DNA of 64,000 nucleotides from Dendrophyllia cribrosa (Eukaryota > Cnidaria > Anthozoa > Scleractinia > Dendrophylliidae): NCBI GenBank assembly GCA_024195265.1, contig JAJLRJ010000004.1, forward strand, positions 28,470,434 to 28,534,433, in the 5' to 3' direction. A program made the position numbers and the translations under genes. Below are positions 2,011 to 64,000 of the stretch, in pieces. A model generated the notes under the pieces. It saw only the letters and a program-made list of their open reading frames with translations. It ran no database searches and was not told where the DNA came from. How positions within the stretch are numbered: position 1 is the stretch's first letter; each line of letters opens with the position of its first letter.

Positions 2011-2074
2011 TTACCTAGTAGACAAAAAGCGACAGAATGATCCTACTCTGTCCATTTGAATATATGTTTCGCTA
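2011..2074 (+). repeat. Direct repeat, copy 1
   Basis: About 64 bases beginning TTACCTAGTAGACAAAAAGC recur in the same orientation at 10784-10847 with only a few changes. The copies lie on either side of Harbinger element 1, so before that insertion they were about 0.6 kb apart. Confidence 0.7.
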
Positions 2075-2755: not shown

Positions 2756-2789
<34 letters not shown>

Positions 2790-3924: not shown

Positions 3925-3971
3925 TACCCCATCTAGTCAGTGGGCCACTGACAAAAGTACCACGAGACTGA

Positions 3972-29774: not shown

Positions 29775-29825
<51 letters not shown>

Positions 29826-45727: not shown

Positions 45728-45794
45728 TGCTGGTATTAAAAGAAAAGTATCGGCGTCGCCGTCCTACGCGAAATTACACATTCTTAAGTATTAT

Positions 45795-46019
45795 GGGACT
45801 TTAGATCGGACGACGAGTACGAGATTGAGTACGAGTACGACTTTTAAAACTTAGTTCGCGTACTCTAAATAACCATTTACCACACAAATTTATACCTAGA
45901 GTCTTCTTATCTTCTGGTTTGCAACAGGAAGGACCGACAGCTCTGGGGACGTGACTGGCTTTAAATTCAAAAGTCATACTCGTACTCAATCTCGTACTCG
46001 TCGTCCGATCTAAAGTCCC
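45795..46019. repeat. Harbinger-like MITE (GGGACTTTAGATCGGA termini)
   Basis: Arms of about 55 bases, GGGACTTTAGATCGGACGAC and its reverse complement, with GAGTACGAG repeats. About 225 bases, close to the right end of element 2. Confidence 0.75.
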
Positions 46020-46120
46020 CTAATTTGTCTTTGGCGGGAACGACGGGATTGGTCCCAGTCTCACTCGTCCAGTGCCGTCCCCGTCGTAGCTTCCCGACCT
46101 TGTATCTTAAGGTCCCTAAT

Positions 46121-49031: not shown

Positions 49032-49164
49032 GCACGAGTGGTGGGTGGGGGATGGCTCAAATGCGGTTTTTTGAGCCGATTTCCAATTTGTCCTCACTTC
49101 GTTCGGAAAAATTGGAAATCGTCTCAAAAAATCGCATTTGAGACCCTCCCCCACCCACTACTCG
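49032..49164. repeat. 133-bp inverted repeat at the left edge of the virus-like cluster
   Basis: GAGTGGTGGGTGGGGGATGG at the left is matched by the reverse complement at the right. Arms of about 52 bases around a short TTCG-containing centre. It ends about 38 bases before the first virus-like ATG. It could be an element terminus, a hairpin or an unrelated MITE. Confidence 0.6.
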
Positions 49165-49201
49165 GGATTCCCGTTCTCAAAAACCCGTAAGAGGGAGTCA
49201 A

Positions 49202-49721
49202 ATGTGTTTTTCCCCGAGCCCACCCGCAACGGCAAGCGAGGCACCACCAATTGAAGAAACCACATTACCCCCTATAAACGTGACAATGCCATTCGCCAAC
49301 GAAGCAATGACTGCTGTTGCGTTTTTGAAAATGAGGGGGATTGAGGTGAAAGAACGATGACTTATATGCAAAGAACAAAGGGACGTTCGAATACAACCCT
49401 TGCAGACGTTGTGGTTTAAACTTCACCCAAGGCCATTCTCTTGTTGAGCATCAAAAATACGCTTGCAAGAAACTGCGAACAGAACCACGCCCGAAAGAGA
49501 TTTGTCCCGGCTGCAATCGAAGATTGTGTAGACAAACGGTTTCCAGACACTTAAGAAATGGTTGCCCTCCCCCGAAAAACACCCCTTGTGATATAAACCT
49601 TAGCCAGTATGAACGGGCATTGTTTGACTCTAAATGGCTAAGCCAGGAGTATATGTCAATTGGACAAATCTCTCCCCTGTATATACCAAACCAACATGGC
49701 AATGGTGGCTCAAGGACTTGA
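49202..49721 (+). pseudogene. C2HC zinc-finger protein, frameshifted
   Basis: From ATG 49202 the frame runs to a TGA at 49358-49360. The continuation in the next frame starts just before that point and is open to 49721. The second part has two Cys-x2-Cys-x(11,12)-His-x4-Cys motifs (starting CRRCGLNF and CPGCNRRL). I read this as one gene with a single frameshift near 49355. Zinc-finger domains of this kind bind nucleic acid or mediate contacts; the role here is unknown. The 3' end overlaps the promoter and start of the next gene. Confidence 0.55.
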
Positions 49722-50154
49722 CTTCAATTCAAAGAATCAAGACTACTTCGGCGAATGGTTGCTGTCTTTTGGTGAATCTCATTGGGACTACTTACCAGAC
49801 ATGATCAAGGATTACATCCTTGAACTGGTTGAAAGGAGTATCCAGCGTGACTTGGCTGCCAGGACCCTTCATCAACGCAGGATGAAATCTGTATGCCTTT
49901 CAATAAAAAATCATTATCACTGGGAACACCTTTGCCATTTCCGTTTATTCACTTCACAAACATGTGATGAATGTCAAGAACACTTCTCGCCAGAAGTGGA
50001 CATGGGCAGGCACAGAGCCATTTGTCCTGGCATGCCGCTTTATAGAGCTTTTCAGGGGGCATTGATGTTTACAGGCATCGACAGTGATGACGAGGAAGAT
50101 TATGATGGCCCAAGTGCTCACGAAAGTTTCTATGGCAGTGCTCACTCAACGTGA
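49696..50154 (+). CDS. Small C2HC zinc-finger protein of the virus-like element
   Basis: 152 residues from the ATG at 49696, chosen because TATATACC lies 8 bases upstream (49680-49687). An upstream ATG at 49660 would place the start before this element. The middle is helical and acidic. Near the C-terminus is one finger, Cys-x2-Cys-x12-His-x3-Cys (CDECQEHF ... HRAIC), and the tail is Asp/Glu-rich (DSDDEEDYD). It overlaps the end of the preceding gene in another frame and meets the next gene tail-to-tail, overlapping by about 13 bases. Function not recognised. Confidence 0.6.
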   Translation: MAMVAQGLDFNSKNQDYFGEWLLSFGESHWDYLPDMIKDYILELVERSIQRDLAARTLHQRRMKSVCLSIKNHYHWEHLCHFRLFTSQTCDECQEHFSPEVDMGRHRAICPGMPLYRAFQGALMFTGIDSDDEEDYDGPSAHESFYGSAHST

Positions 50155-50553
50155 CCCATCTTTTCAAGCATGATCTTCCAGTTTTGTTCGTGCTTCCACA
50201 TTGATTTTTCTGGGACTTGCAGCCAGAAGTAATTGACAAGCCGTTGTGGCCCTTTTATCGCATCCAAGATTTTGTGGGCCACAAAGGGCATGGAGATTCT
50301 TTTCGGCAGATATTCTTCGATGAAATTGAAAGAATCATTTGCATGTTGTATTTCATCATAGGACAAGCAGAAGTAGGGTTCACAAATTTTCAGATGTTTG
50401 TTGAGATAGGTTTTGAAGTTGTAGCGTTTGGTGGGCCTTCTTTTTTTTGGTAATTTTGTAATCACCACCATAGAGTTCGTTATAATCGAAGGTCACACCA
50501 TCCAGAGGCTCTAAGAGCCCGCAGTCCTCACAGCAAAGTTCTGATGAAAACAT
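50142..50553 (-). pseudogene. Possible late-transcription-factor-like protein, frameshifted
   Basis: An ATG at 50553 opens a frame with the zinc-ribbon-like start CCEDCG. It runs to a homopolymer of eight A (about 50450), where it must shift to the frame of 50471-50142 to continue. The second part has a helix with YNFKTYLNKHLKI, then KILDAIKGPQRLVNYFW. A Cys-rich start followed by a compact helical domain resembles poxvirus VLTF3-like late transcription factors found in large DNA viruses and relatives. That is a weak inference. It lies 27 bases downstream of the preceding minus-strand gene. Confidence 0.4.
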
Positions 50554-50580
50554 CCTGAGGTTTAATTTGCCTTTGCAGTT

Positions 50581-50889
50581 TTAGCAATTTTTTGTCCTTT
50601 CATTCACAAGGGTGAAAGGTGAGTGTTGGGGGTATTGTGCCTCGTGAGAAAGATACTCCTTGATGATATGAAGGCGTTCTGACAGGTTTGAACGCCGTAT
50701 TTCCTTGGTGTAGCTTTCGAGTGAGCGCAGGAGGATAAATTTGTATTCTTTATCAAGCTCATCTAGTTTGGCTTTGTATTCGCCTTTAGTGTCCAAGGAC
50801 CGAACATCAGACAGTTGTTTAGCGAACTTCTCCATAGTTGTACACAGCCGGGTTATGTATTCAATTGGGCGCAAATGATTTATCCTTAG
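50581..50889 (-). pseudogene. Small helical protein of the virus-like element, start codon lost
   Basis: The frame is open from just after the upstream stop to 50581. The region from about residue 5 is helical and charged (KLDELDKEYKFILL). No ATG lies in the expected place. An ATA at about 50889 could be a mutated ATG, or translation could begin at an internal ATG. About 97-103 residues. No family recognised. Confidence 0.4.
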
Positions 50890-50913
50890 AAATGTAGAGG
50901 TTAAAACCTGAAT

Positions 50914-51599
50914 TTAATCTCTCAACTCGGACTTGGATGCTGCGGTGAGAAGACTTATCTTTTTTTGAAACTCTTGTTTGACTTCCTTGCGAAGTTCGTT
51001 TTTGAGTTTCTCGAGGTCTGGCGCTTGTGTTTGAGTGCCAACGTTTTTTTAGCCTTAACACTATCCCTGATTGCAGCTTTGAGTTCGTGATATTTTTCCA
51101 CCTCACGAGTAATTATGGTGAATTCTGCATCACTGATCCTCTTGTCTTCCAGAGCCTTTGAGACCAGTTCATAGACAGAGTTGCGTTTAGCCAGGGCCAG
51201 TGTGTAGATATTCTCGTGTTTGGTCACTTTACGCTCTAATCGCTTGTTAGCAGCTGTGAAGCCAACTGATGACAGCCCACAGAGGGTCGCGATGCCGGCA
51301 AGTGCTGGGCTTGCAACAATTCCGAACCCAGTCAATGCAGTGGCAATGGCCCCTGATGACAGCCCGACAGAAAGTGACCCAAGGCCAACCGCCGAGTAAT
51401 GAACTAAGGCTTGGGTTCGTTTATATTTTTTTGCGACCTGACGGTAATGCTCGGCTTCGTCAGACAGCTCTTTAAGCAAGTCAGAGATTTTTTTGAGCCG
51501 GAAATCTTCTGCATTGATTTGAGTGATCTCACGCATAGGGTATAGCTGTTGTGTCTCGCTGTATTCGGGGGCCGATGGAAGCACATTGGCAGAACTTAT
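50914..51599 (-). pseudogene. Protein with a glycine-rich membrane hairpin; start lost, one frameshift
   Basis: A TATATA-type promoter (51607-51618) precedes an ATA codon at 51597-51599, exactly where ATG is expected. The frame then runs through a helical region (about 50 residues), a Gly/Ala/Leu-rich hydrophobic double segment (SLSVGLSSGAIATALTGFG and following), then a second charged helical region. Near 51020 the frame must shift once; the continuation ends at TAA 50914. Two adjacent membrane-spanning segments suggest a virion or virus-membrane protein. Related frames occur in other invertebrate genomes by recollection only. Confidence 0.5.
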
Positions 51600-51622
51600 G
51601 GCGTGGGGTATATATATGCTTT

Positions 51623-52288
51623 TTAATTGATCTCAACTTCAAATTCCAAAGGCGCGTCATTGAAGTTGAAGAGGTTATTGTTTTCATCCCTCGCTGACAG
51701 TGTTCTGTTGTTTACATAATCACCAGACGATACGTCACGCAAGACGTTCTGTTGTGTTGTCTCGTAGAGAATTTTCTCAAAAGCTTTTCCACGAATATCA
51801 AACCGAGCCAAAACTGTTGAAGGCTTACCATTGAGGAGGTTTTGTTCTTTATCGACCAGATCACAGTGGATGAAGTAAGCGCTTGGTGCCCTTAAACGCT
51901 TGACGAATGTTATAAACATCAATACGGGGTTTATGCCAAGCAATGCTGCCAGATTGTTACTAAGCGTTACACTGCCGCCGTTATTATGAATGACCATGGC
52001 TCCGTATGGCGCCTTTGTTTCGATTGTTAGATTTAAATTGCTGTTATAGGTTTTTAGGTTTTCAAATTCTTTCGCTAAACTCTCAAGGGTGTGATGCCCT
52101 GGAAGTAAGGTTGCCCCGTGTGAACTACTAGTGGGTGTTGTTGGTGAAATCTGTGCTTCTTCTTTCAAAGTATGCCACGAGTTGAAAATTGAGCAAGAGA
52201 CAAGCCGGATGTAATTTGGTCTCGGAAGTGCGTGGTCGAAATAGATCGTGTAAGGGTTCGAAGTCGTGACGATTGTTAACATAACCAT
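51623..52288 (-). CDS. Candidate minor capsid (jelly-roll-like) protein
   Basis: 221 residues from the ATG at 52288, chosen because GGTATATAAT (52300-52308) lies just upstream; an ATG farther upstream overlaps the divergent gene. Beta-rich, with the segment YFIHCDLVDKEQNLLNGKPS and a C-terminal PLEFEVEIN. This pattern occurs in a group of capsid-associated proteins of Polinton-like elements as I recall; the assignment is inference. The frame is intact. It is divergent from the gene starting at 52341, with about 50 bases between the two starts. Confidence 0.5.
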   Translation of the reverse strand: MVMLTIVTTSNPYTIYFDHALPRPNYIRLVSCSIFNSWHTLKEEAQISPTTPTSSSHGATLLPGHHTLESLAKEFENLKTYNSNLNLTIETKAPYGAMVIHNNGGSVTLSNNLAALLGINPVLMFITFVKRLRAPSAYFIHCDLVDKEQNLLNGKPSTVLARFDIRGKAFEKILYETTQQNVLRDVSSGDYVNNRTLSARDENNNLFNFNDAPLEFEVEIN

Positions 52289-52298
52289 GACAGATGCG

Positions 52299-52340
52299 AG
52301 GTATATAATTAACATTTTATAATCATAATTATATACAATC
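52299..52340. promoter_or_regulatory. Bidirectional promoter with two TATATA elements
   Basis: GGTATATAAT (52300-52308) faces the minus-strand gene and TATATAC (52330-52336) faces the plus-strand gene whose ATG is at 52341. Confidence 0.6.
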
Positions 52341-52501
52341 ATGTTTGGCGGACGGCCTGGTGGATTTAATCCTAATTCAAATCTTGGTATAAACATCGGC
52401 GGGCACAATTACGGCCCCCACCCCCTTTTTATTCGCCTCCAAATGCCTATACCCATGTGGCGCCAAAGCCACCACCCCCTGATCCTCAAATTGCTTGGAT
52501 T
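52341..52501 (+). pseudogene. 5' part of the virus-like gene interrupted by the DIRS element
   Basis: The ATG at 52341 follows TATATAC at 52330-52336. The reading starts Gly/Asn-rich (MFGGRPGG). A one-base change of frame within a C-run near 52415-52425 is needed to read a natural Pro-rich segment up to the DIRS left end at 52502. The remainder of the gene continues at 57391 on the other side. The gene is therefore both frameshifted and split. Confidence 0.6.
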
Positions 52502-52614
52502 AATTGAAAATTAAACAAGACTTACCTGTAAGTTGAAGTTTGATGATAATTCTGCCAAATCATTAGTAGTACAGAAGGGTTAACATGAGATGCGCACGCA
52601 CCGCCGCAGGTCAG
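52502..52614. repeat. DIRS left terminal repeat
   Basis: Starts AATTGAAAATTAAACAAGAC; its end (GCACGCACCGCCGCAGGTCA) is the inverse of the right terminal repeat. Confidence 0.85.
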
Positions 52615-52735
52615 TTTTTAAAGACATTTTGTGATCACCTCAGCACAGCCTGACTGGCGCAGGAAATCAATAATGCTGAAGTGACAGGAAGGCATAAAGC
52701 CATGATAGGGTGGGTTCATATAAGGGTGTAATGGG

Positions 52736-52859
52736 CATGTTAACCCTTCTGTACTACTAATGATTTGGCAGAATTATCATCAAACTTCAACTTACAGGTA
52801 AGTCTTGTTTAATTTTCAATTCTACCAAATCATTATGTACATCCGGGTTACCATGAGAT
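52736..52859. repeat. DIRS internal complementary region
   Basis: 52736-52821 is the reverse complement of the left terminus and 52818-52859 that of the right terminus, meeting at AATT. This serves as template to complete both ends. Confidence 0.9.
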
Positions 52860-52959
52860 TTTAACGCAGAGAGCACAAAATGACAAAGTGCCCAATCAGT
52901 CTATGTCATAGCATAGTTTAATTCCACACAGCTGCAATACACATTCTACATGTATAAGC

Positions 52960-54183
52960 CTATTTGAGAACTGATACACTCATCTGGTTTGTCACAGCAA
53001 CTGGTTTGTTGTAGAATTTACGAAATGTGGACTCTTCAGTCCAACCAGCTGTAGCTAGGATTACATCAGTAGAAACAGACGTAAGTGCTTTACTCGTTGA
53101 AGCACATCTAGTACTATGAGCAGAGAATAACTCTGTATCAATGCCTGCCTGACCTAACATGGTTTTGATCCAGCGTCCAATAGTGGACGAGGTCACTGCC
53201 CTATGTGGTTTGATGAATGATACAAGCAATTTAGTGGAATCCCTTAATTTCTCAGTAACACTCATATAGTAATCTAAAGTTTCATACACACACAGTTCCT
53301 TAACTGGGTACTTGTACAAGCGGACATTTCCAAACACTTTGCCAGGCTTGTCCTGCTTGAGGTGTTCCGTTAAGGCAAAATTAAAACATTGCTCATTTCT
53401 CTGCATATACTCTGCTGATATATCCAAAAATGTCAGTGTCTGACACCTTTGCCCTGTGGTCAGTGCAATCAACATGACTAATTTCAAGGTGAGTTCTTTC
53501 AAATTGATCTTATCCAGAGGCCAAAATAAACTCAGGTAATCAAGAACAGTGTCCACAGGCCAAATGTTGTTGTACTTTGGCACAGGCTTGAGTTTGTTGA
53601 ACACTCCTTTAAGGTATCTGCACACAAGGAAATGCTTCCCTACTGGTGTACGATCCTGATCATCACTGCCATTCATGTCAATGTTGGAGATTGCTGAACG
53701 GGCTGTATTCAGAGCAGAGTAGCTTAAACCTTTCTCGAAGAGGCTGTGCAGGAACAAGAGCACGGCCCTTACAGAGGGATGCAGGGGATCATGTGACCCT
53801 TCACTACAAAATTGCAACCACTTGTTGATATACACCTTGTATTGTTTGTGTGTACTATCTCGCCAGGAATGCATGATGATCTCAACAATGTCTGGCGAAA
53901 GTTCCGACTTCTGCAAGGATTGCCTGATAATTTGCATACCAGTAACTCCAGACGTCGGTGTAGTGGATGTGGACCGTCCAGAGTTGGATGAATGAGATTC
54001 TGAGCAGAAGCCTTCAGAACCCGTGGTGTGTCTATCAATAGACTCAGCACAGCTGTAAAGTATGGCTGTGTTGTCCATAGAGGTATTATCATGATTCCCG
54101 TTGCCTGACTGTGAATTATTTGTTGCACACATCTGGAAATAAGACAAAAGGGGGGAAATGCGTAAAAGAAAAAATTTGACCAA
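52960..54183 (-). CDS. DIRS tyrosine recombinase (YR)
   Basis: 407 residues as called, or 390 from the second Met at 54132. The N-terminal SAM-like core-binding domain includes the WRDSTHKQYKVYINKWLQF region. The catalytic domain has the first Arg in ALTTGQRCQTL, then HSTRCAS (His-x-x-Arg) and the nucleophile Tyr in FRKFYNKP. It integrates the circular DNA copy without a DDE integrase. The ATG at 54132 is directly preceded on this strand by a pyrimidine tract and CAG, a good splice acceptor, so the YR may be made from a spliced message. It overlaps the end of the RT frame by about 415 bases in another frame, as is usual for DIRS. Confidence 0.9.
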   Translation of the reverse strand: MVKFFLLRISPLLSYFQMCATNNSQSGNGNHDNTSMDNTAILYSCAESIDRHTTGSEGFCSESHSSNSGRSTSTTPTSGVTGMQIIRQSLQKSELSPDIVEIIMHSWRDSTHKQYKVYINKWLQFCSEGSHDPLHPSVRAVLLFLHSLFEKGLSYSALNTARSAISNIDMNGSDDQDRTPVGKHFLVCRYLKGVFNKLKPVPKYNNIWPVDTVLDYLSLFWPLDKINLKELTLKLVMLIALTTGQRCQTLTFLDISAEYMQRNEQCFNFALTEHLKQDKPGKVFGNVRLYKYPVKELCVYETLDYYMSVTEKLRDSTKLLVSFIKPHRAVTSSTIGRWIKTMLGQAGIDTELFSAHSTRCASTSKALTSVSTDVILATAGWTEESTFRKFYNKPVAVTNQMSVSVLK

Positions 54184-55856
54184 TCAATGGAAAAAGCATC
54201 TACATACTTTGCCATTGGATGTGGTTTCCACGATACATAGGTCTCTACTTGCGCATTAAGTCTACTAGCAAAGAGATCTATGTCTGGTTGTCCAAACAAC
54301 AAGGTAATTTTCTTGAATACGGGAGCTGAAAGCATCCATTCAAGATCCAAATTCAAATTGCGAGATAACTGATCAGCATCAACATTGCTAGATCCTGGAA
54401 TATGGGCAGCTGAAAGCCAAATATTCTTGGCAATGGCCCAATCCCAAATTTCTCGTGCAAGGGAGTTACAATCTAATGACTTGCATCCCCCCATGGCATT
54501 AATGTAGGAAACAGCAGTAGTGTTGTCCGACATAATCCTAACATGAATGTTACTTCTGTCATCGCACAAAGATGACAATGAAAGTTTAACAGCTAATAAC
54601 TCTAGATAATTAATGTGCTTGGCTGATTCAAGTTTGGACCATATACCACAAGTATGGTTGCCATGTTCAATTTGAGCACCCCAGCCTTTTAGAGAAGCAT
54701 CAGTGTAAATTACTACGTCAGGACTGGAGTGGTGGATCTTCCTTGAAGCCGAATGAACATTAGCAGACCACCAGTGAACCTCTGTCAAGCACTCATTAGA
54801 TAAGACCATGAATGCATCGAAATTCCCCTGATTCAATTTTAAGTTTCTCTCTTTATCAGCCTCGATGTGACGATAATGGAGGGGCCCAAAATCCACCCCA
54901 GGGAAGCTTGAGACTAGTGTGCCAAGAAAAGATGCAACCTCACGGATTGTAAACTGTCTATTTGGCTGAGAAAACTTATGGCACAACTGCAAGAGCTTAT
55001 CAGCTTTCTTAGTTGTAAGAGTCACCATCATGTGAATGGAATCCAAAACGAATCCTAGAAACTCTAAAGTTTGAGTCGGTATGATAACTGACTTATCAGG
55101 ATGGATTGTAAAACCTAAGCTGATAATAAATTGCACTGCATGTAATGTGGCTTCCTCGCATTCCACATAATTATCTTCAAGGTAGAAAGAGTCATCAATA
55201 TAACCTAAACAAGTGTGACCAAGCTGACCTCTCAGAAATGCAAAGACAGGTTTCATAATTTTGGTAAAAATTCTAGGACTACTAGACAAGCCCATAGGCA
55301 AGCTAGTAAAGGCATATAACTGGTCTCTCCAAACAAATTTCAAATATTTCTGATGCTCCGATGCAATTGGTATAGAGTAATATGCATCTTTGAGGTCAAT
55401 GGAGGTCATAAAGCATAATGGTCTCATAAGCTTAATAGCTGTCTCTAATGTGTCCATTTTGAAATGATGATAAGACACTGACTCATTCAGTTTCTTAAGG
55501 TTAAAAATTACTCTATGAGACCCATCTTTTTTAGGTCGTGTGAAGATGGGGGATACTACCTGACCATCCTCAGGTGTGGAGAGCCTGATTATTCCTTTTT
55601 GGAGGAATTTCTCTATTTCATTGTCAATGACTGTTCGTTCAAATGCAGTAAAAAACTGTGTTCTCGTGGCATAAATGTGAGACTCAGGTACCAGGTTAAA
55701 TTCAATGTGACAGTGGGAAACTGCATCCAAGATGAATGGATCAGTTGTTATTTTCTCCCACACATGGAGGAAATCTCGTAGCCCTCCTGCCTTAAAAGGG
55801 GGCTGATTTGAAAGAATATTAGCAATAGCACTCTGACTTACCTCTGCAGAAACTAT
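53769..55856 (-). CDS. DIRS reverse transcriptase-RNase H
   Basis: The frame is open from the gag stop region (about 55856) to 53769. The start called at 55763 is only a GTG, and reading continues upstream in the minus-one frame relative to gag, so expression by frameshift or re-initiation is likely. RT motifs in order: VIFNLKKLN, SIDLKDAYYSIP, LPMGLSSSPRIFTKIM, and the catalytic YIDD in CLGYIDDSF. RNase H follows: VVIYTDASLKGWGA, LELLAVKL, SDNTTAVSYINAMGG, and a final IPGSSNVDADQLSR. The C-terminal tail overlaps the YR frame. No frameshift or stop is seen. No methylase-like domain was noticed. Confidence 0.85.
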   Translation of the reverse strand: MVSAEVSQSAIANILSNQPPFKAGGLRDFLHVWEKITTDPFILDAVSHCHIEFNLVPESHIYATRTQFFTAFERTVIDNEIEKFLQKGIIRLSTPEDGQVVSPIFTRPKKDGSHRVIFNLKKLNESVSYHHFKMDTLETAIKLMRPLCFMTSIDLKDAYYSIPIASEHQKYLKFVWRDQLYAFTSLPMGLSSSPRIFTKIMKPVFAFLRGQLGHTCLGYIDDSFYLEDNYVECEEATLHAVQFIISLGFTIHPDKSVIIPTQTLEFLGFVLDSIHMMVTLTTKKADKLLQLCHKFSQPNRQFTIREVASFLGTLVSSFPGVDFGPLHYRHIEADKERNLKLNQGNFDAFMVLSNECLTEVHWWSANVHSASRKIHHSSPDVVIYTDASLKGWGAQIEHGNHTCGIWSKLESAKHINYLELLAVKLSLSSLCDDRSNIHVRIMSDNTTAVSYINAMGGCKSLDCNSLAREIWDWAIAKNIWLSAAHIPGSSNVDADQLSRNLNLDLEWMLSAPVFKKITLLFGQPDIDLFASRLNAQVETYVSWKPHPMAKYVDAFSIDWSNFFFYAFPPFCLISRCVQQIIHSQATGIMIIPLWTTQPYFTAVLSLLIDTPRVLKASAQNLIHPTLDGPHPLHRRLELLVCKLSGNPCRSRNFRQTLLRSSCIPGEIVHTNNTRCISTSGCNFVVKGHMIPCIPL

Positions 55857-56860
55857 TGGGTCTTGGATGATGGGGTCTTGGGATTCTGATGGGACCGTAC
55901 TTGGCCCCGGCCTGGTGCTAAAAAAGGACGACTTGTAAACCTTGATCCCCTTCCCCTGCCATTACTCTGGCTAAAGCGGCCACGACCACGCATGCCTCTA
56001 CCAGATGGGACCTTATAAGGCTCCATGCGTTGCTTTGGAGTAACTTTATTGCTGAGCTTGTTAGATTTGGTAAGCTCTTCTACCTCCTTGTTAAGGTCAT
56101 CCCCAAACAGAAAAGTTGACACAGCAGTAGACGGATTGCACAGTGAGACATATTGTTTGTTCAGATCAGGGCGAATGAGATCCCTGCGTTTCAGGTTGAG
56201 ATCCCTATTTGCTGATAACAATAGGACTGCTGCATGAGTCAGGGCATTTTTATGATCCCCACTAGAACTGTTGCACACCTGGAGGACTGCATATAAACCT
56301 GAAATCAGCAATGCCTGTGTCTTCTGGAACGCAGAATCAGTGTTTCTGGTTTCCTGATGTAATTGTTGCCAAATTTGTTTATTTATCTTGGGAGCCACCA
56401 AATTGGTGCAGTTTTCAGGTCTCAGGTACTTTCCCTGTACCTCACTTAGCTTTTCTTTCGAGAGCTTTTCTGCAAGTAGACTTTTCACTATATCCGCCAA
56501 ATTTGTATTTATGGCTGGAGATGTCTTTTCACCAATACTGAACTCTTGCGCAAGTGATTCGAATGAATCATTGCTTGAACCTTGACCGGCGTCAGGGTCT
56601 TTTGGCTGAATAAACTCATTAATGTTGCTTTCCACCACAGCATCTGGGCTATTCTCTGTGCTGATTTGAGAACCCTCAGGCTCAGCTTCAACAGCTTCGA
56701 AGTCGATATAGACTTGATCAATAGAGTCTTTAACTTGAGCTAAGATATCCTTCTTAGCATCATCGAGAAGTTCAGTAAACATAGCCTTAAACTCTGCAGA
56801 CGTGGGGGGTCCAGAATGGCCTGGCTTTCCAGACGGATCAGGCTTAGTCTTGTCACCCAT
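55853..56860 (-). CDS. DIRS gag-like protein
   Basis: 335 residues. First frame of the element, starting MGDKTKPDPSGKPGHSG. The N-terminal third is acidic with a helical segment, the middle is helical, and the C-terminus is Arg/Gly-rich (RGRGRFSQSNGRGRGSRF), fitting RNA binding. No zinc knuckle. Assigned as gag from its position before RT and its basic tail. Confidence 0.75.
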   Translation of the reverse strand: MGDKTKPDPSGKPGHSGPPTSAEFKAMFTELLDDAKKDILAQVKDSIDQVYIDFEAVEAEPEGSQISTENSPDAVVESNINEFIQPKDPDAGQGSSNDSFESLAQEFSIGEKTSPAINTNLADIVKSLLAEKLSKEKLSEVQGKYLRPENCTNLVAPKINKQIWQQLHQETRNTDSAFQKTQALLISGLYAVLQVCNSSSGDHKNALTHAAVLLLSANRDLNLKRRDLIRPDLNKQYVSLCNPSTAVSTFLFGDDLNKEVEELTKSNKLSNKVTPKQRMEPYKVPSGRGMRGRGRFSQSNGRGRGSRFTSRPFLAPGRGQVRSHQNPKTPSSKTQ

Positions 56861-57325
56861 CGTCTATAACACAAAACGAAGAGGTGAAGACAGGATTAGA
56901 TAACTTGAAATCCAAAATGGCGGACACGTCCGCCACGTGTTTCGAAGCCGGTTTCAACAAACGGCTGAACTTCGCTTACAATCTCGTTGTAAACGGATAT
57001 AAAAGTAATGGGCCGTAAAATCCCAAATAACTTTAAGAGTGAACAGGTATAAAGCGCGTTATACCTCGTTAGTTCGACTCAGGACACGTCCTGCAGTCAC
57101 TAATTTTGCCAAGTCGAGCACTGTAACACGTAACAAGACTCGCGAAATGAATAAACAGAAATGCAGGCCATTTATGACCGAAACAGTAGTGGAACGCGTC
57201 CACTGCAAGCGAAAGACAAAATAATAAATAGAAACCAGGTAAACTTACCGTGAAATAACGGTACAGGAACCCAAATAACAGCACGATGACAAACACGTCC
57301 GAACCTACGGCGATCGATAAGTGCA

Positions 57326-57390
57326 CTGACCTGCGGCGGTGCGTGCGCATCTCATGGTAACCCGGATGTACATAATGATTTGGTAGAATT
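57326..57390. repeat. DIRS right terminal repeat
   Basis: From CTGACCTGCGGCGGTGCGTG to TTGGTAGAATT. The virus-like sequence resumes at 57391. Confidence 0.85.
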
Positions 57391-59036
57391 CGCCGGAGGC
57401 TGCCAAGATCTCTGCTGCGGCCAGGGTCAAGGCGATCTCAGACTTCAAAAAGCGTTTCCCGCGCGCCGATATGTCTCACTTTGAACTGCAAGTAGAGTTT
57501 GGCGACGACCACAAAACCGCCACAGGGGAAGTGCTTTACAAAGAGGGCCAAGGCTCATTGGCACTTATCACAGAAATACCCCACAAAGATTGGACTTACG
57601 CCGAAAGAGACGCTCTTGGCCTTCATTATTACGGTGGTTTCCCTTATCAGTTATCATTGGGACAACAAATGTTATCAATCCCGGCTGTTGCTTTCACCGC
57701 AACAATAGACAAAGACATGATGATTGGCGCAATCTTAAATGACAAAGAGCAAAAGATTTACGTCACGCCAACTGATTATTTCACAACGAAATACAGAAAT
57801 ATCTTCAGGGACACGCAGATTTCATTCACAACCGCGAAATACGGCCGAAAGTGGATGGGTGGGCCGCACATGAGTTTTTGGCCGCAACAACTCTCCTTCG
57901 CCCTGTGGTGTGCAACAACCGGCTGTGGAATCTCGCGCGACATTCTCTTCGATAAGAACTCCAGTCTATCCCTAACACCACAGTTAAGGTCGTTTTACCG
58001 GTTTCACGTTTATTTCACAACAAGGCGAATACTCTACCAGATGGGTGGGGAACAAAGCGTGAGTGCTTTGCCAGACGACCCTCCATTCAACCAGAAAGAC
58101 AACAAGTACAACATCGACGCGTACAAGAAGCTTTGCATAGAGTTCGGTATCGACCCCAGTTCTGACTTCCGTTACACATATGGCAAGAACCACGGTCTTG
58201 GAAATGTCTACATTTGGGCTTATGGAGAGGGCCCCACATCTACCGATTATGAGTACCCCGATCCCGATCTAGCTCTGTTCGATGATGAGCGAGTGACTGA
58301 CAGAAAAGACCCCAATTATCGAGCCAATGGTATATCTTTCGTTCGCAACGATCAAGGGGCGGACACCCAGTTTGAGCGCTTTGTGCCAAATTACGCACAG
58401 GGGCTAACACAGCCAGGGCTCGCGCGTATGAACCAATCAATCGAGGCCTTTGTGTACTGCATTCTTGGTTCACAAGCCAAAACCCGCAGCAGCATCATTG
58501 GAAGAGGAGGTCGGGCCTTCGAAACGCAGAGAGTATTCCTCACCCATCTAGAGGAGGCCATAATACTGAACGACATTGCAACAAGCGTACAGCGTTACCA
58601 GCTTGCCATCCAAGCAACGAAAGTGCGCTTAGACTTTGCGACAGCACCCGGAAGCTGGCTCATGCCATCGCGCATGATTATCAACACAGAGAGCGTGATC
58701 GGGTATAACAACAATCTACAGGAGGCAACGCAAGGGATGAAGCTGGGCGTGAACAGTGGTGTTAATCTGGGCACAAAAAAAGCCTCCCTTCGCCACATGG
58801 ACGGTGGCCCGACAAAGATTAATCCACCAAACAGCCACCCATCAAACCCGATACATCTCCAGGCCACACAGGCACAGGGCATCGCCACAGCCCCACCCGC
58901 ACCCACACCACAACCAGCCCCAACACCCACACCACAGCCCAAACCCACACCACAGCCCCACCCGCATCACGTAAACAAGACACTCATTGGAGTGGGTGCG
59001 ATTGCTTTGGCAGGGCTTTTCGTTTGGTTGAGGTAG
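57391..59036 (+). pseudogene. Main part of the interrupted virus-like gene (C-terminal membrane anchor)
   Basis: The frame is open immediately after the DIRS element, about 27 codons before the first Met at 57471, and runs 521 more residues to TAG at 59034-59036. The upstream codons and 52341-52501 are the missing N-terminal end. The folded part (about 1-430 of the Met-started frame) shows no family I can name. It has FPYQLSLGQQMLSIP and an Arg/Gly-rich IIGRGGRAFETQ. A Pro/Gln/His-rich linker follows (about 465-500), then one hydrophobic span (LIGVGAIALAGLFVWLR) at the very C-terminus. A large soluble head on a tail anchor suggests a virion surface or vertex protein. Function unproven. Confidence 0.6.
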
Positions 59037-59130
59037 TCGAAAATCAATGTAGCCTGACAAATTTTTTCGCTCCACTGAGTGCTCCCAATTTTAGCGATCA
59101 AAAAAGGTAGCCGAAAAATGGCGGTAGCCC

Positions 59131-60528
59131 TCAAGACCTCGCACGCTTGGTGATCCTTTCAACAAGGAAGGCCACCACGGCAAGGATGAGCAGCCAGGCG
59201 TGTTTACCCAGAAAGGAGATGACCGACCCGGCCGCTTTGAAGATGAAGCTCACAATTGAGCCAATGAGGCCAGGCAAGGCGCTGGCTGCCTTTTTACCAA
59301 GCTCTTTAAGCCCATTTCCAATAGCCTTGGTGGCCCTTGCCAGGCCGTTCAAGGTGGCTAGTACAACAGCGCTGATGGTGATGCCAGCTGCCAGAACAAT
59401 CGCTTGCAGGGTCCATCCGTATTTCTTGAAGATTTCTCTGACCCTCTCTCTCAAAGACAGTGCTTGTTCACGCACCTCAACCTGTGTTCTGAGCCTTGCC
59501 AGTTCTTCTTCTCGCTCAGCAACTCGGGCTTCCGCTGCTTCTCTTTCAGAGAGAGACGTGTTCTCATCCTCTATGACGCGCTTGTCTTCCTCGTTCTGCT
59601 GTTCAAGCTCGACTTCTCTTTCGTTTAACTCATCAAGTGGTTTAGTTGAGTTTAGCCTTGCTTCACGTTCATTTCTTTCCTTCTCTTTGGCAGCAAGGCG
59701 TGTTCTGGATTTGTCCGCCTTTGCTTGTTCTTGGGTTCGTTGTTTGTCTATTCGTTTTTTGTTTTTTGTTTTATATTCTGCTTCTTCTTTTTCCAGTTTT
59801 TCTATATCTATTTCATAATTTTTATTTAGATGTTTTAGGCGGTCTAGCTCGGCTTGTTGTTCAAGGATTGAACCACCTTCAGCCATTATAGCGTCAATCC
59901 GCGCTTGATTTTGTTCTTTTTTGTTTCTGAGGGCTTGCAGCTCATTTTGTGTTTGTTGCCTTTTCACAGCAATACTTTCAATCTCCTTAAGTTTTTCTTC
60001 CGACACCTCAAATCTTTGTCTTTCTTCCCTTATCGATGCGTTATCTTCATAGATAAGCTCTTCAGCGCTTGGGCCAAGGGATGTTTTGAACTTGTCTGTG
60101 AACGATTTAAGAAAGCTCCCATCTTGCTTGAAAATGAGAGTTTCCCCGCCTTTTGGTCCAAAGGAAACAAATTTGTCATCATTTGCTGGTTTTTTACCAA
60201 AACCAATTGGGCCTAATTTCGGGAAGTTTACTTTTGGAAACTTCTTTTTGATCCAGTCCATGGCTTTATCGATTCTCTCTGCTTTTTCATTTCCGTCTAT
60301 GATTTCTCCAAGCATAGGGACGGTTTCAGGGGCACCTGGCAAACCACTTTCTTCGCTAGGCAATGTATGCATTGGAATATGCTCGCCAGGACGATATGGG
60401 GTGGATGTACCGCCTGGTTGAAAGGGTGTTGTTGTGTCAACTTCTTGTTCGTCCTCGTTGTCGTCATCATCGTGGTCAACCCAAGGATTATCGGGCATAT
60501 CTCCTGGATCAAAACCGCCTTCAGCCAT
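59131..60528 (-). CDS. Coiled-coil protein with C-terminal membrane segments
   Basis: 465 residues from the ATG at 60528, chosen because the promoter GGGTATATA (60532-60540) lies directly upstream; a longer call from 60624 would run through the promoter. The N-terminus is acidic (DDDDNEDEQEVD) and Pro-rich. A short region reads FPKVNFPKLGPIGFGKKP. Residues about 170-375 form a long Glu/Arg/Lys coiled coil. The last 100 residues hold two or three hydrophobic segments (IVLAAGITISAVVLATLNG; GLIGSIVSFIFKAAGSVISF; WLLILAVVAFLVERI). The layout suggests a structural or membrane-acting virion protein. No family recognised. The frame is intact. Confidence 0.6.
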   Translation of the reverse strand: MAEGGFDPGDMPDNPWVDHDDDDNEDEQEVDTTTPFQPGGTSTPYRPGEHIPMHTLPSEESGLPGAPETVPMLGEIIDGNEKAERIDKAMDWIKKKFPKVNFPKLGPIGFGKKPANDDKFVSFGPKGGETLIFKQDGSFLKSFTDKFKTSLGPSAEELIYEDNASIREERQRFEVSEEKLKEIESIAVKRQQTQNELQALRNKKEQNQARIDAIMAEGGSILEQQAELDRLKHLNKNYEIDIEKLEKEEAEYKTKNKKRIDKQRTQEQAKADKSRTRLAAKEKERNEREARLNSTKPLDELNEREVELEQQNEEDKRVIEDENTSLSEREAAEARVAEREEELARLRTQVEVREQALSLRERVREIFKKYGWTLQAIVLAAGITISAVVLATLNGLARATKAIGNGLKELGKKAASALPGLIGSIVSFIFKAAGSVISFLGKHAWLLILAVVAFLVERITKRARS

Positions 60529-60578
60529 CGTGGGTATATAAATATAAAATATAAATTTTAAAAACACAAATATATACC
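60529..60578. promoter_or_regulatory. 50-bp bidirectional promoter
   Basis: GGGTATATA (60532-60540) faces the minus gene and TATATACC (60571-60578) abuts the ATG of the capsid candidate. The rest is almost pure A/T. Confidence 0.7.
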
Positions 60579-61829
60579 ATGGCTGTGCAACCGAATCTAC
60601 TTCCATCTCACAGTGTAAAGACACTGGGCGCCATGAAGGCAGAGCGAACCGTCAAGCACATCACATTCACCCCCTCTAAGGCTGATCCCGGTGAGACACT
60701 GTACGTCTCGGTGCCCAAGCTAGGCACTGACGTTGTCATTGTGCCCGGCTCGCTGGCCCTGGTGTTTAACCTTTCCCTAGCCGGCGGCCATGCAAACAAC
60801 TATCTCGTACAAAATGTTTCTCGGGCCCTGGTGGACAAATTCGTTGTAAAGTTTGCCGCCACAACTGTCCAGGACACGTCTGGGTACGACATCTACAAGA
60901 TCTTCGAAGACCTCTTCCGATCAACCGATGAGCGGGAAAATATGCTTATGGAGGGCATCCAGAGTGTGGATTTGTGCAAGATCCGCTCTGGTGCTGGCGA
61001 CAAGAAGCCCTCCAGCGTGGATGCTGAAACCAAGCTTGAGACAATATACAAGAATAATTATCGCATCAATCTTGATCACCAAATATTAACTGGCCACGGT
61101 GTTATATATCCTCAAGCACTGTATAACGATCTGGTCTTCGAACTAACCCTCGCCCCCGCAAACCAAGTTGTCCGAGGCTCAAACACAAGCAAGCTCGTGT
61201 ACAAGTTGGAAAACATCCAGCTGGAGTATGAGACGATCAGAAGTAAGAGGCTGGCCGACGAGGCAACAAGCACTTACACAAGTGGCAAGGAGTTCGCCTA
61301 TGACTACGTAATGAGAGAGAGGGTGGTTCCCTTCTCAAAAAGTGGTGACACTCTGCTGAATCTTAAGGTTAACCCACAGCGCCGGTCTCTCAAGGGCATC
61401 CTCTTGCTGTTCATCAACCCCTACACGGCTGGTGTCAGGGACTCTGAGCACTATTTCAATCCCGACATCACCAAAGTGAAGGTCACAGTCAACGGTACCA
61501 CAAGCAGGGTCTACAACGAGGGCATCAGTGGTACAGACATGTGGAGAGAGATAACCCGGCATTTTACCCCACACACGTACGGCAGGCCTAACATGAACCT
61601 GATAAAATATCTCACAGGCAACAAGTTTGGTCTCTGGATTGACCTGCGGTCAATGGCTGACATAGCCCTGCACGGCAACGGCCAACGTCTCGTCAACACA
61701 CAGGATGGCGTGCAACTCGAGATCGAACGAAACGGCACAGGCTCGGGAAACTCAAACTGCCACATCTTCACCATCTCAGACTCACAGATGAACATCATGG
61801 GCAGACAGCTGGAATCTGTACAGTACTAA
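60579..61829 (+). CDS. Candidate double-jelly-roll major capsid protein
   Basis: 416 residues, intact. The N-terminal part has the strand pattern VVIVPGSLALVFNLSL followed by ANNYLVQNVSRALVDKFVVK and then YDIYKIFEDLFRS. This order (strand at the membrane-distal edge, NN-x-L segment, strand, then tyrosine-containing helix) matches the first jelly roll of Polinton and adintovirus hexon-type proteins. The second half is also beta-rich (LKGILLLFINPYTAG). The length is a little short for the family. It sits directly before the packaging ATPase, a neighbour often seen in this virus group. Assignment is inference from pattern and context, not from a search. Confidence 0.6.
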   Translation: MAVQPNLLPSHSVKTLGAMKAERTVKHITFTPSKADPGETLYVSVPKLGTDVVIVPGSLALVFNLSLAGGHANNYLVQNVSRALVDKFVVKFAATTVQDTSGYDIYKIFEDLFRSTDERENMLMEGIQSVDLCKIRSGAGDKKPSSVDAETKLETIYKNNYRINLDHQILTGHGVIYPQALYNDLVFELTLAPANQVVRGSNTSKLVYKLENIQLEYETIRSKRLADEATSTYTSGKEFAYDYVMRERVVPFSKSGDTLLNLKVNPQRRSLKGILLLFINPYTAGVRDSEHYFNPDITKVKVTVNGTTSRVYNEGISGTDMWREITRHFTPHTYGRPNMNLIKYLTGNKFGLWIDLRSMADIALHGNGQRLVNTQDGVQLEIERNGTGSGNSNCHIFTISDSQMNIMGRQLESVQY

Positions 61830-61863
61830 GTAAACACACAACACATGCATACGAACAACACAC

Positions 61864-61877
61864 ATATATATATACCC
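61864..61877 (+). promoter_or_regulatory. TATATACC promoter element of the packaging-ATPase gene
   Basis: TATATATATACCC ten bases upstream of ATG 61887. The same element is found at 49680-49687, 51607-51618 (minus), 52300-52308 (minus), 52330-52336, 60532-60540 (minus), 60571-60578, 62636-62643, 62895-62905 and 63583-63590. Confidence 0.7.
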
Positions 61878-61886
61878 ACCAGCCCC

Positions 61887-62628
61887 ATGACCACAAACAA
61901 GATCAACTTCTATCCCAAACCGGCTCCCCTGCCATCCACCGGACAATTATCACACAATGAAATACAAAGACTTCTAGCAAAGGCCCCCTCCCCACCAGTT
62001 TACAAACCAACTAATATAGCGGTTGGTTATGGACCCAAGAAAGCTGCCATTCAACGCACTAATCGTGGGCCCCACTAACTCTGGCAAGACACAGTATCTT
62101 CTCTCCCAACTGCGAGGCCCCTTTAGGGGTTGTTTTGATTACATCGTTTTATTCTGCCCCACATTTGTTAAGAACAAGACATACGATGGCTTCGTGGACC
62201 GCGATCCGCACATCTTCGTCATCGTCTGCCAGCAGCATGAAATCGAAGACTGGTTGAGACTGGCGAGCTTCTTTTTCACATGCACCAACACTTTATTCAT
62301 TCTCGATGACTGCGCCGCCTCCAAAGATGTCAAAGGCCGCACGGGCTAGCTGGTCAATCTGGGGTTCAGTGCAAGGCATGACGGCATATCCGTGTGGGTC
62401 TTGACCCAGCAGATCACCAGCATTGCCAAGCCATATCGTGACAACATTGCAGCGATCGTGCTCTTTTACACACCATCCAGCAAGACAACCAAAGCCATAT
62501 TCGAAGATTATGCCGGCGAGCTCTCCCACGAGGAGTACAAAGAGTTTATTGCAAGGCTCAAATCCAGCAAGTTTTCCCACCTGGTTTTCTCTCTGAGACA
62601 CCCGTATGGAATTGAGTACAAGATTTAA
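61887..62628 (+). pseudogene. FtsK/A32-type genome-packaging ATPase, broken
   Basis: Start chosen at ATG 61887, ten bases after TATATACCC (61869-61877). The N-terminal Pro-rich part is in one frame and the frame shifts near 62040. The P-loop GPTNSGKT (Walker A) follows in the new frame, then the Walker B strand LFILDD. A TAG stop at 62347-62349 cuts the protein after Walker B. The same frame continues beyond it with VWVLTQQITSIAKPYR (sensor/glutamine motif) to TAA at 62628. This is the A32-like/HerA-FtsK ATPase that pumps viral DNA into capsids; about 245 residues when the two lesions are counted, normal for the family. With a frameshift and a nonsense codon it cannot work. Confidence 0.8.
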
Positions 62629-62643
62629 ACACACATATATACC

Positions 62644-62883
62644 ATGAATGCGCCAACAAGGCTACACAAGCTCACTGTGCTTTCACAGCTTTTGGATGAA
62701 TTGCACAAACACACACTTGAGGTGCAAAACAAAATTATCAAAGCCGCTGGTGAGGAAGATCTGCGCCTCATGCTTCTCAACAGATATCCCTTGCGGTTGA
62801 ATTCTATGCCAGACACCATAGCGGGGGTGGTACGAGAGCTTGAAGCCCTTTTGCCAGACATCAAGAGAATTATTGAAAATTAA
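62644..62883 (+). CDS. Small helical protein of the virus-like element
   Basis: 79 residues. TATATACC (62636-62643) abuts the ATG. The sequence is nearly all amphipathic helix with Leu/Glu-rich heptads (LLDELHKHTLEVQNKI). It could be a small capsid-assembly or accessory protein. No family recognised; frame intact. Confidence 0.6.
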   Translation: MNAPTRLHKLTVLSQLLDELHKHTLEVQNKIIKAAGEEDLRLMLLNRYPLRLNSMPDTIAGVVRELEALLPDIKRIIEN

Positions 62884-62908
62884 AAAAAAACACATATGTA
62901 TACCCCTG

Positions 62909-63574
62909 ATGGCTGAAGCAGCAGAAGACCAGGTCGCCTTGAACGAAGTAATGCAGATGCTGGAGGCCACCCCTGGTGCCGCACCTCCCACAGGGCTAGT
63001 TGGAGACAATGACATTCCTGCCAAACGTGAGAAGCTTGCAATCCTTGTTTCAACTGGCAAGGCAAAAGAAGCTATCGGCGTACAGCTCACACACGATCGT
63101 GTGGCGCGGCTGTCAGACAAGGACGTTGAGAAGTACTGCAAAAGGTACGAGGCCTACGTCGGCAGCAAGACGACCGAATCCCTAATTGATTCAACTATCA
63201 CGCTCGCGACCAAAGGCATTGGCCTAGTGGCCACGATTGATGACGCCAATGAGTTGCAGCAAGAAATCAAGAACAACTACATCATCAACCATGAGCTGGC
63301 AAATCTTGCTGGGGATCTTGCCCTGCGATGCGGACGATGGCTGGCGCTTGCCTTTGCTGCTCTCATCACAACAAAACACATCAAGTTTGAACGAGAGCCT
63401 GATTTGATAGAATTAGAACCCCAGCCCCCACCCACACATCCAACCAGAGACAGTGAAGGCTATCCACTTGAGGGCCTTGATGAAGTTGGGTTGGGCCCTG
63501 TGGCGACCTCGCAGGAACCTGTCAGCAACCTGACAGCAACCTGGCAGCAACCTGACACATCTTGTAAAAAATAA
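62909..63574 (+). CDS. Unrecognised virus-like element protein
   Basis: 221 residues from ATG 62909, four bases after TATGTATACCC (62895-62905); an in-frame ATG at 62840 would overlap the preceding gene. Acidic N-terminus, a helical middle, and one weak hydrophobic segment (WLALAFAALITT at about 147-158), then a Pro/Gln-rich tail. Frame intact. Not recognised. Confidence 0.6.
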   Translation: MAEAAEDQVALNEVMQMLEATPGAAPPTGLVGDNDIPAKREKLAILVSTGKAKEAIGVQLTHDRVARLSDKDVEKYCKRYEAYVGSKTTESLIDSTITLATKGIGLVATIDDANELQQEIKNNYIINHELANLAGDLALRCGRWLALAFAALITTKHIKFEREPDLIELEPQPPPTHPTRDSEGYPLEGLDEVGLGPVATSQEPVSNLTATWQQPDTSCKK

Positions 63575-63592
63575 AACTCACATATATACAGG

Positions 63593-64000
63593 ATGACCAC
63601 ACCACTCGAGACGATCCCTGAAGAAACTCAAACCCCAACTCCAACACCTTCCCGTGTTACCTCTGAGATCCCGAAAACAAAGCCTGCAACAGAAAAGAAC
63701 CCCGGCCGCGTTGCTTCTGGCAAAAGGCTAGCAGAACGCAACCGCCTGGCCCGCGAAGCAAAGAAAAAGGCCGAAGAACAAAAGCCTGCACCATCAAGAA
63801 GTGGGGCAACAAGCGGCACAACAAGTGGCACAACAAGTGACACAACAAGTGGCACAACGAGTGACAGCAACAGCTACTCAATCTTTTATATTCTGGGGTT
63901 TGGAGGGTTGGCTGTCTCTCTTGCTGGTGTTTATTACCAACGCGAAGCCATAATGCAAAGGTTTGGACGCAAATCAAACACCACACCGGCAACACCAGCA
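63593..64000 (+). CDS. Membrane protein with Thr/Ser-Gly repeat, cut by the window edge
   Basis: The frame is open from ATG 63593 (two bases after TATATACA at 63583-63590) to the end of the window, 136 codons, incomplete. Order: Thr/Pro-rich start, basic helical region with RLAERNRLAREAKKKAEEQ, a short repeat of SGTT-like units, one transmembrane segment (FYILGFGGLAVSLAGVYY), then a basic, Thr/Pro-rich continuation. Probably a virion membrane or anchor protein. Not recognised. Confidence 0.6.
   Translation, partial: MTTPLETIPEETQTPTPTPSRVTSEIPKTKPATEKNPGRVASGKRLAERNRLAREAKKKAEEQKPAPSRSGATSGTTSGTTSDTTSGTTSDSNSYSIFYILGFGGLAVSLAGVYYQREAIMQRFGRKSNTTPATPA

What the first reader, a model, noticed from the sequence alone, without database searches (positions are those of the whole stretch)
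49032..64000. A virus-like gene cluster with packaging ATPase and capsid candidates in an animal genome
The sequence shows a P-loop, Walker B and LTQQ segment of an A32/FtsK packaging ATPase next to a beta-rich protein with capsid-like pattern, plus small zinc-finger, coiled-coil and membrane proteins, all compact and on both strands. Established knowledge: these two proteins are hallmark genes of Polinton, adintovirus and related double-jelly-roll DNA viruses. Inference: this is an endogenous copy of such a virus, perhaps a poorly described lineage, because several of its proteins match no family I can name.
Basis: partly seen in the sequence, partly recalled or inferred. Interest (0 to 1): 0.9.

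Follow-up and report, generated by a model that had tools for sequence, protein, structure and literature searches.

The report
Polinton viruses with hairpin genome ends
A coral-like animal genome carries hundreds of copies of a virus-type capsid gene, and nearly all examined ends of the elements that bear it hold an inverted sequence predicted to fold into a long hairpin; the pairing is kept while the letters change, which likely points to a way of copying DNA ends not yet described for this virus group.

Summary
It runs from window 49037 to 6,104 bases past the window (21,068 bp, including a ~4.9-kb DIRS-like retroelement), with 226-bp inverted repeats and a 5-bp target duplication. Beyond 64,000 lie an rve integrase and a family-B DNA polymerase. 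The 60579 product models, with modest confidence, as a double-jelly-roll capsid. A 36-base capsid mark occurs at 681 places in the 627-Mb genome (control 0).

The unreported part is the ends. In 69 of 70 fetched ends the outermost 110-167 nt form a hairpin (41-75 bp) next to the target duplication. In 34 of 34 ends chosen by polymerase similarity the hairpin is also there (control windows 0 of 20). Between elements the stem often changes on both sides (29 of 57 pairs; 97.5% of cells paired). Between the two ends of one insertion, stem changes in 25 comparable elements are one-sided (27 versus 0). No reversed loop was seen in 70. Likely reading: a cis-acting hairpin telomere that re-forms a duplex (AGT)2 origin on single strands. 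Seen in one genome; mechanism inferred. New variant of a known kind.

The parts
49032..49036 (.). 5-bp target-site duplication GCACG (second copy at L009:6105-6109, past the window)
49037..49162 (.). terminal hairpin, 126 nt, 54 bp stem, 5'-AGTGGT...ACTACT-3' (twin at the other end: L009:5979-6104)
49037..49262 (.). left terminal inverted repeat, 98.2% identical to L009:5878-6104
49660..50154 (+). 164-aa ORF, no family
50142..50471 (-). 109-aa ORF, sub-threshold VLTF3-like match (E 0.026)
50581..50874 (-). 97-aa ORF, no family
50955..51584 (-). 209-aa ORF, unknown
51623..52288 (-). 221-aa conserved protein, candidate penton/minor capsid (unproven); 879 relatives
52495..57390 (-). DIRS-like retroelement (approximate bounds; RT-RH, tyrosine recombinase, a further ORF, split inverted repeats), inferred to sit in the 5' part of the 57471 gene
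57471..59036 (+). 521-aa conserved protein; its 5' part appears cut off by the retroelement; model unusable (pLDDT 45)
59131..60624 (-). 497-aa ORF (start uncertain), coiled-coil-like by eye
60579..61829 (+). major capsid protein, predicted double jelly-roll
62029..62628 (+). A32/FtsK-type packaging ATPase, interrupted by TAG at 62347
62644..62862 (+). small ORF, 73 codons translated, no family
62840..63574 (+). ORF of unknown function (start uncertain)
63593..64000 (+). ORF of unknown function reaching the window end; past it in L009: small ORFs, rve integrase (1064-2053 +), PolB in two overlapping frames (2029-5939 -)

Best explanation
This is an integrated Polinton/Maverick-type DNA virus whose capsid gene is present at hundreds of places in the genome, and the last 110-167 bases at nearly all of the ends examined are an inverted repeat predicted to fold into a hairpin that likely serves as a replication telomere. 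Shown: the hairpin sits at the very end of the integrated unit, its two arms stay largely complementary across 16 groups of arm sequence, its outer arm mostly begins with (AGT)2 and its inner arm ends with (ACT)2, and no reversed loop was found. Inferred: when protein-primed PolB copies one strand and displaces the other, each end of the displaced single strand folds on itself, so that its ACTACT-3' end pairs with the inner AGTAGT and re-forms a double-stranded (AGT)2 origin in cis, without needing the far end as in the classical panhandle; replication can then restart from either end. Also inferred: arms are kept in register partly by fold-back copying of one arm from the other, then frozen by integrase-mediated insertion with a 5-bp stagger.
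For: Window end: dG -53.1 against shuffles -14.2 (sd 2.8), z -13.9, 0 of 200 shuffles as good. 69 of 70 fetched ends are hairpins and 31 of 33 two-ended elements have a 5-bp target duplication touching the hairpin. Ends chosen by PolB similarity, not by end sequence: 20 of 20 (19, L092 through L051) and 14 of 14 hand-picked from the lower part of the same list; equal windows inside the PolB gene 0 of 20. Covariation on 20 distinct 126-nt hairpins: 29 of 57 pairs changed on both sides, 97.5% of cells paired, score 0.321 versus 0.108 shuffled (0 of 500) and 0.04-0.06 slid; by my count from that table 69 of 120 double changes have no wobble intermediate. Left/right differences within one insertion, 25 of 33 elements: 27 one-sided stem changes, 0 two-sided; between elements 1,758 two-sided and 1,307 one-sided over 194 comparisons, so pairing is largely kept while replicating and lost after insertion. 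Own-arm complementarity averages 0.913 versus 0.727 identity to other elements' arms. Hairpin core at 51 places: by my count 23 inward-facing pairs 8-24 kb apart and 5 singles; 22 pairs and the 5 singles have an element gene listed, one pair was not checked. Capsid dN/dS 0.21 in 8 copies.
Against: No replication intermediate, terminal protein or virion was seen; the priming domain was not identified (0 Pfam matches to the PolB N-terminal part). Some stem mismatches are shared by several copies (6 of 20 cells each at columns 17/111 and 54/72), so arms are not corrected every round. Covariation counts cells, not events, related copies are not independent, and one 126-nt hairpin with a poorer stem (L083) was left out. 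Own-arm complementarity goes down to 0.604. In one element (L029/L030, unequal lengths, so not among the 25) the two ends carry different middles. A hairpin could instead serve integrase, packaging or gene control. Only one host genome could be searched for ends.
Confidence: 0.55

Rival explanations
1. The ends work as in adeno-associated virus: the 3' hairpin primes synthesis itself and is resolved by nicking and hairpin transfer.
For: Same overall design (recalled): a terminal palindrome of about 125 nt with a 3' end that could prime; one loop has become a perfect palindrome (L081), a possible trace of self-templating.
Against: Hairpin transfer should give both loop orientations (recalled); 69 of 70 ends have one orientation (67 by motif, 2 by eye), 1 is symmetric, 0 reversed; the 23 pairs all face inward. 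No Rep/NS1-type endonuclease match among the ORFs scanned, though not every small ORF was scanned.
Confidence: 0.15
2. The pairing is kept by selection on a folded end for another task, such as recognition by the integrase, packaging ATPase or terminal protein.
For: Constant position and a nearly constant (AGT)2/(ACT)2 base (96 of 102 records have both); shared mismatches persist.
Against: Few wobble intermediates: 7 one-side-changed cells against 120 double, while stepwise selection should pass through them.
Confidence: 0.2
3. The hairpin is an unrelated foldback repeat (MITE) of this genome that happens to sit in the inverted repeats.
For: Short palindromic repeats are common in such genomes (recalled).
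Against: One hairpin core at 51 places, 46 of them in inward-facing pairs and no solo copy recognised; 1 match to the loop in the 64-kb window, at the element end; unlike arm sequences sit at the same place.
Confidence: 0.03
4. These are dead transposon copies with no virus-like propagation.
For: This copy is damaged: ATPase stop, polymerase frame broken, one gene apparently split by a retroelement.
Against: 93 of the 100 scored capsid copies (of 1,544 candidates) have no stop; capsid dN/dS 0.21 at dS 0.17 (the 8 best hits, so biased towards low dN); left and right hairpins differ by 34 of 3,284 nt, so insertions look recent relative to capsid divergence.
Confidence: 0.12

Closest known systems
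Polintons/Mavericks, vertebrate type (PMC8097293, passages and the first part of the Discussion read)
   Same: PolB, rve integrase, ATPase, capsid, inverted repeats, about 16 kb without the inserted retroelement, and the (AGT)2//(ACT)2 end motif that paper reports
   Different: 5-bp instead of 6-bp target duplication; terminal hairpin in nearly all ends examined; no protease recognised; 681 capsid marks, where that paper gives 38 as the largest number of intact copies in one vertebrate genome (it also mentions hundreds of defective copies in two species, and PMC7845603, passage, gives about 5,000 Maverick copies in Trichomonas, so high copy number as such is known)
Adintoviruses, including Stylophora coral adintovirus StCAV (PMC11071308, sections 9 and 11 and passages; PMC11071296, passages)
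   Same: anthozoan-like host, PolB plus integrase plus DJR capsid
   Different: N-terminal OTU domain and integrase chromodomain not confirmed; no reference sequence compared
Parvovirus (AAV) terminal hairpins (recalled)
   Same: palindromic termini of about 125 nt able to fold on a single strand
   Different: no flip/flop seen, no Rep-type nickase recognised, B-family polymerase, about 16-kb element
Bidnaviruses (PMC4061559, passages)
   Same: protein-primed PolB thought to come from polintons
   Different: that paper states that their inverted repeats do not form the hairpins characteristic of parvoviruses
Kalilo linear plasmid derivative forming hairpin DNA (title only, in the reference list of PMC11071308)
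   Same: linear plasmid of a protein-primed kind with a hairpin form
   Different: a deletion derivative in mitochondria; nothing more was read

Membership tests
Polinton/Maverick | protein-primed family-B polymerase | tested here: met
   DNA_pol_B_2 E 1.9e-11, over the cut-off; protein priming itself not tested
Polinton/Maverick | retrovirus-like (rve) integrase | tested here: met
   rve E 4.1e-5, 24.2 bits, below the curated cut-off of 32.6; 122 close copies among those scored
Polinton/Maverick | A32-type packaging ATPase | tested here: met
   Pox_A32 E 4.8e-10
Polinton/Maverick | double-jelly-roll major capsid | tested here: met
   predicted only, model of modest confidence
Polinton/Maverick | terminal inverted repeats with (AGT)2 ends | tested here: met
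   motif from PMC8097293
Polinton/Maverick | 6-bp target duplication (usual, not hallmark) | tested here: not met
   5 bp in 31 of 33 elements (in one, L053/L054, only 5 flank bases were held), none recognised in 2
Polinton/Maverick | adenain/Ulp1-type protease (in most) | tested here: inconclusive
   no Pfam match among the ORFs scanned; not every small ORF was scanned
Polinton/Maverick | minor capsid/penton | tested here: inconclusive
   51623-52288 conserved, no family and no significant PDB match
Adintovirus | PolB with N-terminal OTU-like domain | tested here: inconclusive
   no Pfam match; OTU-like motifs seen by eye only (recalled)
Adintovirus | integrase with C-terminal chromodomain | tested here: inconclusive
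   no chromodomain match by Pfam; not filed as an adintovirus
Adintovirus | hexon recognisable by BLASTp | not tested
   no reference sequence fetched
Parvovirus-type telomere | terminal fold-back palindrome | tested here: met
   by sequence and predicted folding:
Parvovirus-type telomere | both loop orientations from hairpin transfer | tested here: not met
   0 reversed of 70
Parvovirus-type telomere | Rep/NS1 HUH endonuclease | tested here: inconclusive
   no such match in the ORFs scanned; not every small ORF was scanned

The most novel reading that the evidence does not exclude
A new kind of viral telomere: a protein-primed, integrase-bearing DNA virus whose every end is a self-templating hairpin that carries an inverted copy of its own replication origin, so each single-strand end rebuilds its origin alone. 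It combines the hairpin design of parvoviruses with the polymerase design of adenoviruses and Polintons.
Probability: 0.35. Interest if true: 0.85.

Novelty: new variant of a known kind. Interest (0 to 1): 0.72.

Why it matters
Protein priming and hairpin telomeres are usually thought of as alternative answers to the end-replication problem (recalled); bidnaviruses are described as having a polinton-derived polymerase and no parvovirus hairpins (PMC4061559, passages). A Polinton family that has both would make that divide testable and offer a stepping stone between them. The family also gives dozens of natural variants of one DNA hairpin, with post-insertion drift as a built-in neutral control, in an anthozoan-like genome that carries at least 681 capsid-gene marks of one virus lineage.

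Tried and rejected
Relatives in the viral-contig collection: 4 scans found none, so hairpins could not be checked outside this genome. PDB sequence searches with the capsid, 57471 and 51623 proteins or profiles and with the polymerase gave nothing or only chance-level matches. The 57471 model has pLDDT 45 and was not searched. The solo-foldback-repeat idea was set aside; the AAV-type mechanism was downgraded by loop orientation. A first end pattern of 47 bases found only 6 places, because end sequences differ between subfamilies. The script missed L043 and that picked a neighbouring AT-rich palindrome for L092; both were read by other means. L048 is a damaged end and counts as the one miss among 70. 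Of the 100 places listed (126 counted), 70 were fetched. In one search only 25 of 33 element pairs (equal hairpin length) were compared. L083, one of 21 distinct length-126 hairpins, was left out because it looked out of register; it has 51 bp and would have lowered the paired share.

Papers: listings; passages or sections read. That hairpin ends of Polintons are not in print rests on the searches in open-licence papers only; most of the listed papers were not opened, and one listing showed 20 of 44.
Full report
WHAT IS THERE. The window is G000:C17:28470434-28534433 of a 627-Mb genome in 22 contigs. An element runs from window 49037 to L009:6104, that is C17:28519470-28540537, 21,068 bp. Its 226-bp inverted repeats are 98.2% identical and it is flanked by GCACG on both sides. 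About 4.9 kb of it (roughly 52495-57390) is a DIRS-like retroelement with reverse transcriptase, RNase H and tyrosine recombinase and the inverted repeats. It appears to lie in the 5' part of the 57471 gene, because relatives have an N-terminal stretch that the remaining ORF lacks. Past the window come an rve integrase and a family-B polymerase, the latter in two overlapping frames here, whereas many of the 111 scored copies have no stop in the matched part and an open frame above 1,200 aa. The ATPase has an in-frame stop.

CAPSID. The 416-aa product has 1,787 relatives at E<=0.001 in the protein collection and no significant Pfam or PHROG match. The AlphaFold2 model from 116 sequences has pLDDT 61.5 and pTM 0.54. 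The 50 listed PDB matches (109 at E<=0.001) are capsid chains of PBCV-1, Singapore grouper iridovirus, PR772/PRD1, STIV, faustovirus and EhV-201, with E from 4.1e-9 and TM-scores of 0.32-0.44; that these viruses have double-jelly-roll capsids is recalled. The names listed from the viral library include many major capsid proteins, a MELD virus protein and adomavirus LO7.

COPY NUMBER AND SELECTION. 100 of 1,544 candidate places were scored; these 100 match the capsid at 87% identity or more and 93 have no stop. A 36-base capsid piece occurs at 681 places with up to 3 mismatches, control 0. If most of these belonged to full-length elements of about 16 kb they would fill about 11 Mb; that was not tested. 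For the 8 best copies mean dN is 0.036 and mean dS 0.17, ratio 0.21; for the N-terminal polymerase part of 20 copies the ratio is 0.45. The copies were picked by protein similarity, which biases dN down.

THE ENDS. The outermost 126 nt of the window copy fold as one stem (on 125 of them). I fetched 70 ends by a 23-base pattern that covers only the innermost 12 bases of the hairpin and 11 beyond (126 places in all, control 0). 69 of 70 have a stem of 41-75 bp at the end of the element (at most 2 mismatches in the outermost 12 pairs); the other is damaged. Of 33 elements seen at both ends, 31 have a 5-bp target duplication, one of them with only 5 flank bases held, and 2 have none that I could recognise. 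To avoid choosing by end sequence I took the 20 best loci of a search with the polymerase N-terminal part: all have the hairpin (19, L092 through L051), and none of 20 equal windows inside the gene has one. 14 loci picked by hand from the lower part of the same list (75-83% identity) also all have it, in two size classes near 126 and 166 nt. Together 102 end records gave 86 distinct hairpins; some ends were reached by both routes.

PAIRING IS KEPT. In 20 distinct 126-nt hairpins 29 of 57 pairs are changed on both sides, 22 never vary, 2 vary on one side only, 4 depart only by unpaired cells, and 97.5% of 1,140 cells pair; the shuffled and slid controls are far lower on the score, while one measure, further pair types, is not (38 observed, 35.6 shuffled, 86 of 500 as high). 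Five-prime arms fall in 16 groups at 85% identity, yet own-arm complementarity averages 0.913 (lowest 0.604), and 85 of 86 ends match their own partner arm better than the average other arm. The two ends of one insertion differ by 34 of 3,284 nt in 25 elements of equal hairpin length: 27 differences lie on the stem and change one side, none is compensated, 7 lie off the stem; between elements 1,758 stem pairs differ on both sides and 1,307 on one. So compensation arises in the replicating stage and not in the chromosome. One of the 8 elements of unequal hairpin length carries different middles at its two ends, each self-complementary (L029/L030), which suggests that pairing is kept within an end and not only by copying one end from the other.

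ORIENTATION AND MOTIF. The asymmetric loop runs the same way in 69 of 70 ends, is symmetric in one, and is reversed in none (the strict motif matched 67 and two more, L020 and L044, were classed by eye; the damaged L048 is among the 67). A genome-wide core pattern hits 51 places, which I count as 23 inward-facing pairs and 5 singles; 22 pairs and the 5 singles have an element gene in the listings, and the pair at C21:10961086/10969538 was not checked for genes. The outer arm starts AGTAGT and the inner arm ends ACTACT in 96 of 102 records, partly by choice of pattern for the inner arm. (AGT)2//(ACT)2 is an end motif that PMC8097293 reports for vertebrate Mavericks; that paper links end-motif repeats to jumping-back in protein-primed replication.

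HOW IT LIKELY WORKS. Shown: position, predicted pairing, covariation, post-insertion decay, fixed loop direction. Inferred: a displaced single strand folds at each end so that the 3' ACTACT pairs with the inner AGTAGT, re-forming a duplex origin in cis. Fixed loop direction speaks against AAV-type hairpin transfer. Scarcity of wobble intermediates (7 cells against 120) speaks for arm-to-arm copying, although shared mismatches show that it is not done in every round.

FILING. By hallmark genes this is a Polinton/Maverick-type virus; it departs in the 5-bp duplication, in the hairpin ends, and in that no protease was recognised. I do not file it as an adintovirus: the OTU domain and chromodomain were not confirmed and no reference was compared. 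It resembles a parvovirus telomere in form only.

HOST. 14 GFP-family exon matches lie in two clusters; one exon matches fluorescent proteins and chromoproteins such as amilCP and Azami-Green (that these come from corals is recalled). The species is unknown to me.

Noticed in passing
window 31991-33031 and L010:3953-4993: Two 346-aa intronless galactosyltransferase-like genes, identical at 321 of 347 positions, stop included, lie on either side of the virus insertion; the family label is recalled.
   Followed up: partly
window 52495-57390: DIRS-like retroelement with tyrosine recombinase inserted in the virus, with inverted repeats 52495-52587/52736-52828.
   Followed up: partly
window 50142-50471: Sub-threshold VLTF3-like match (E 0.026) in a small virus ORF, which would be a poxvirus-type late factor if real.
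   Followed up: no
L081 (C6:10628048-10628238): One hairpin loop has become a perfect palindrome while the other end of the same element (L082) keeps the asymmetric loop, a possible trace of fold-back self-copying.
   Followed up: no
window 20543-20860: Array of 54 ATCAGT hexamers.
   Followed up: no
window 29775-29824 and 2757-2789: Uninterrupted runs of 50 and 33 C.
   Followed up: no
window 9574-10161 and 43032-43676: Transposase-like and Myb/SANT-like ORFs that look like parts of Harbinger-type elements (recalled, not tested).
   Followed up: no
window 45790-46024: 59-nt inverted repeat, 95% complementary, 117 nt between the arms.
   Followed up: no
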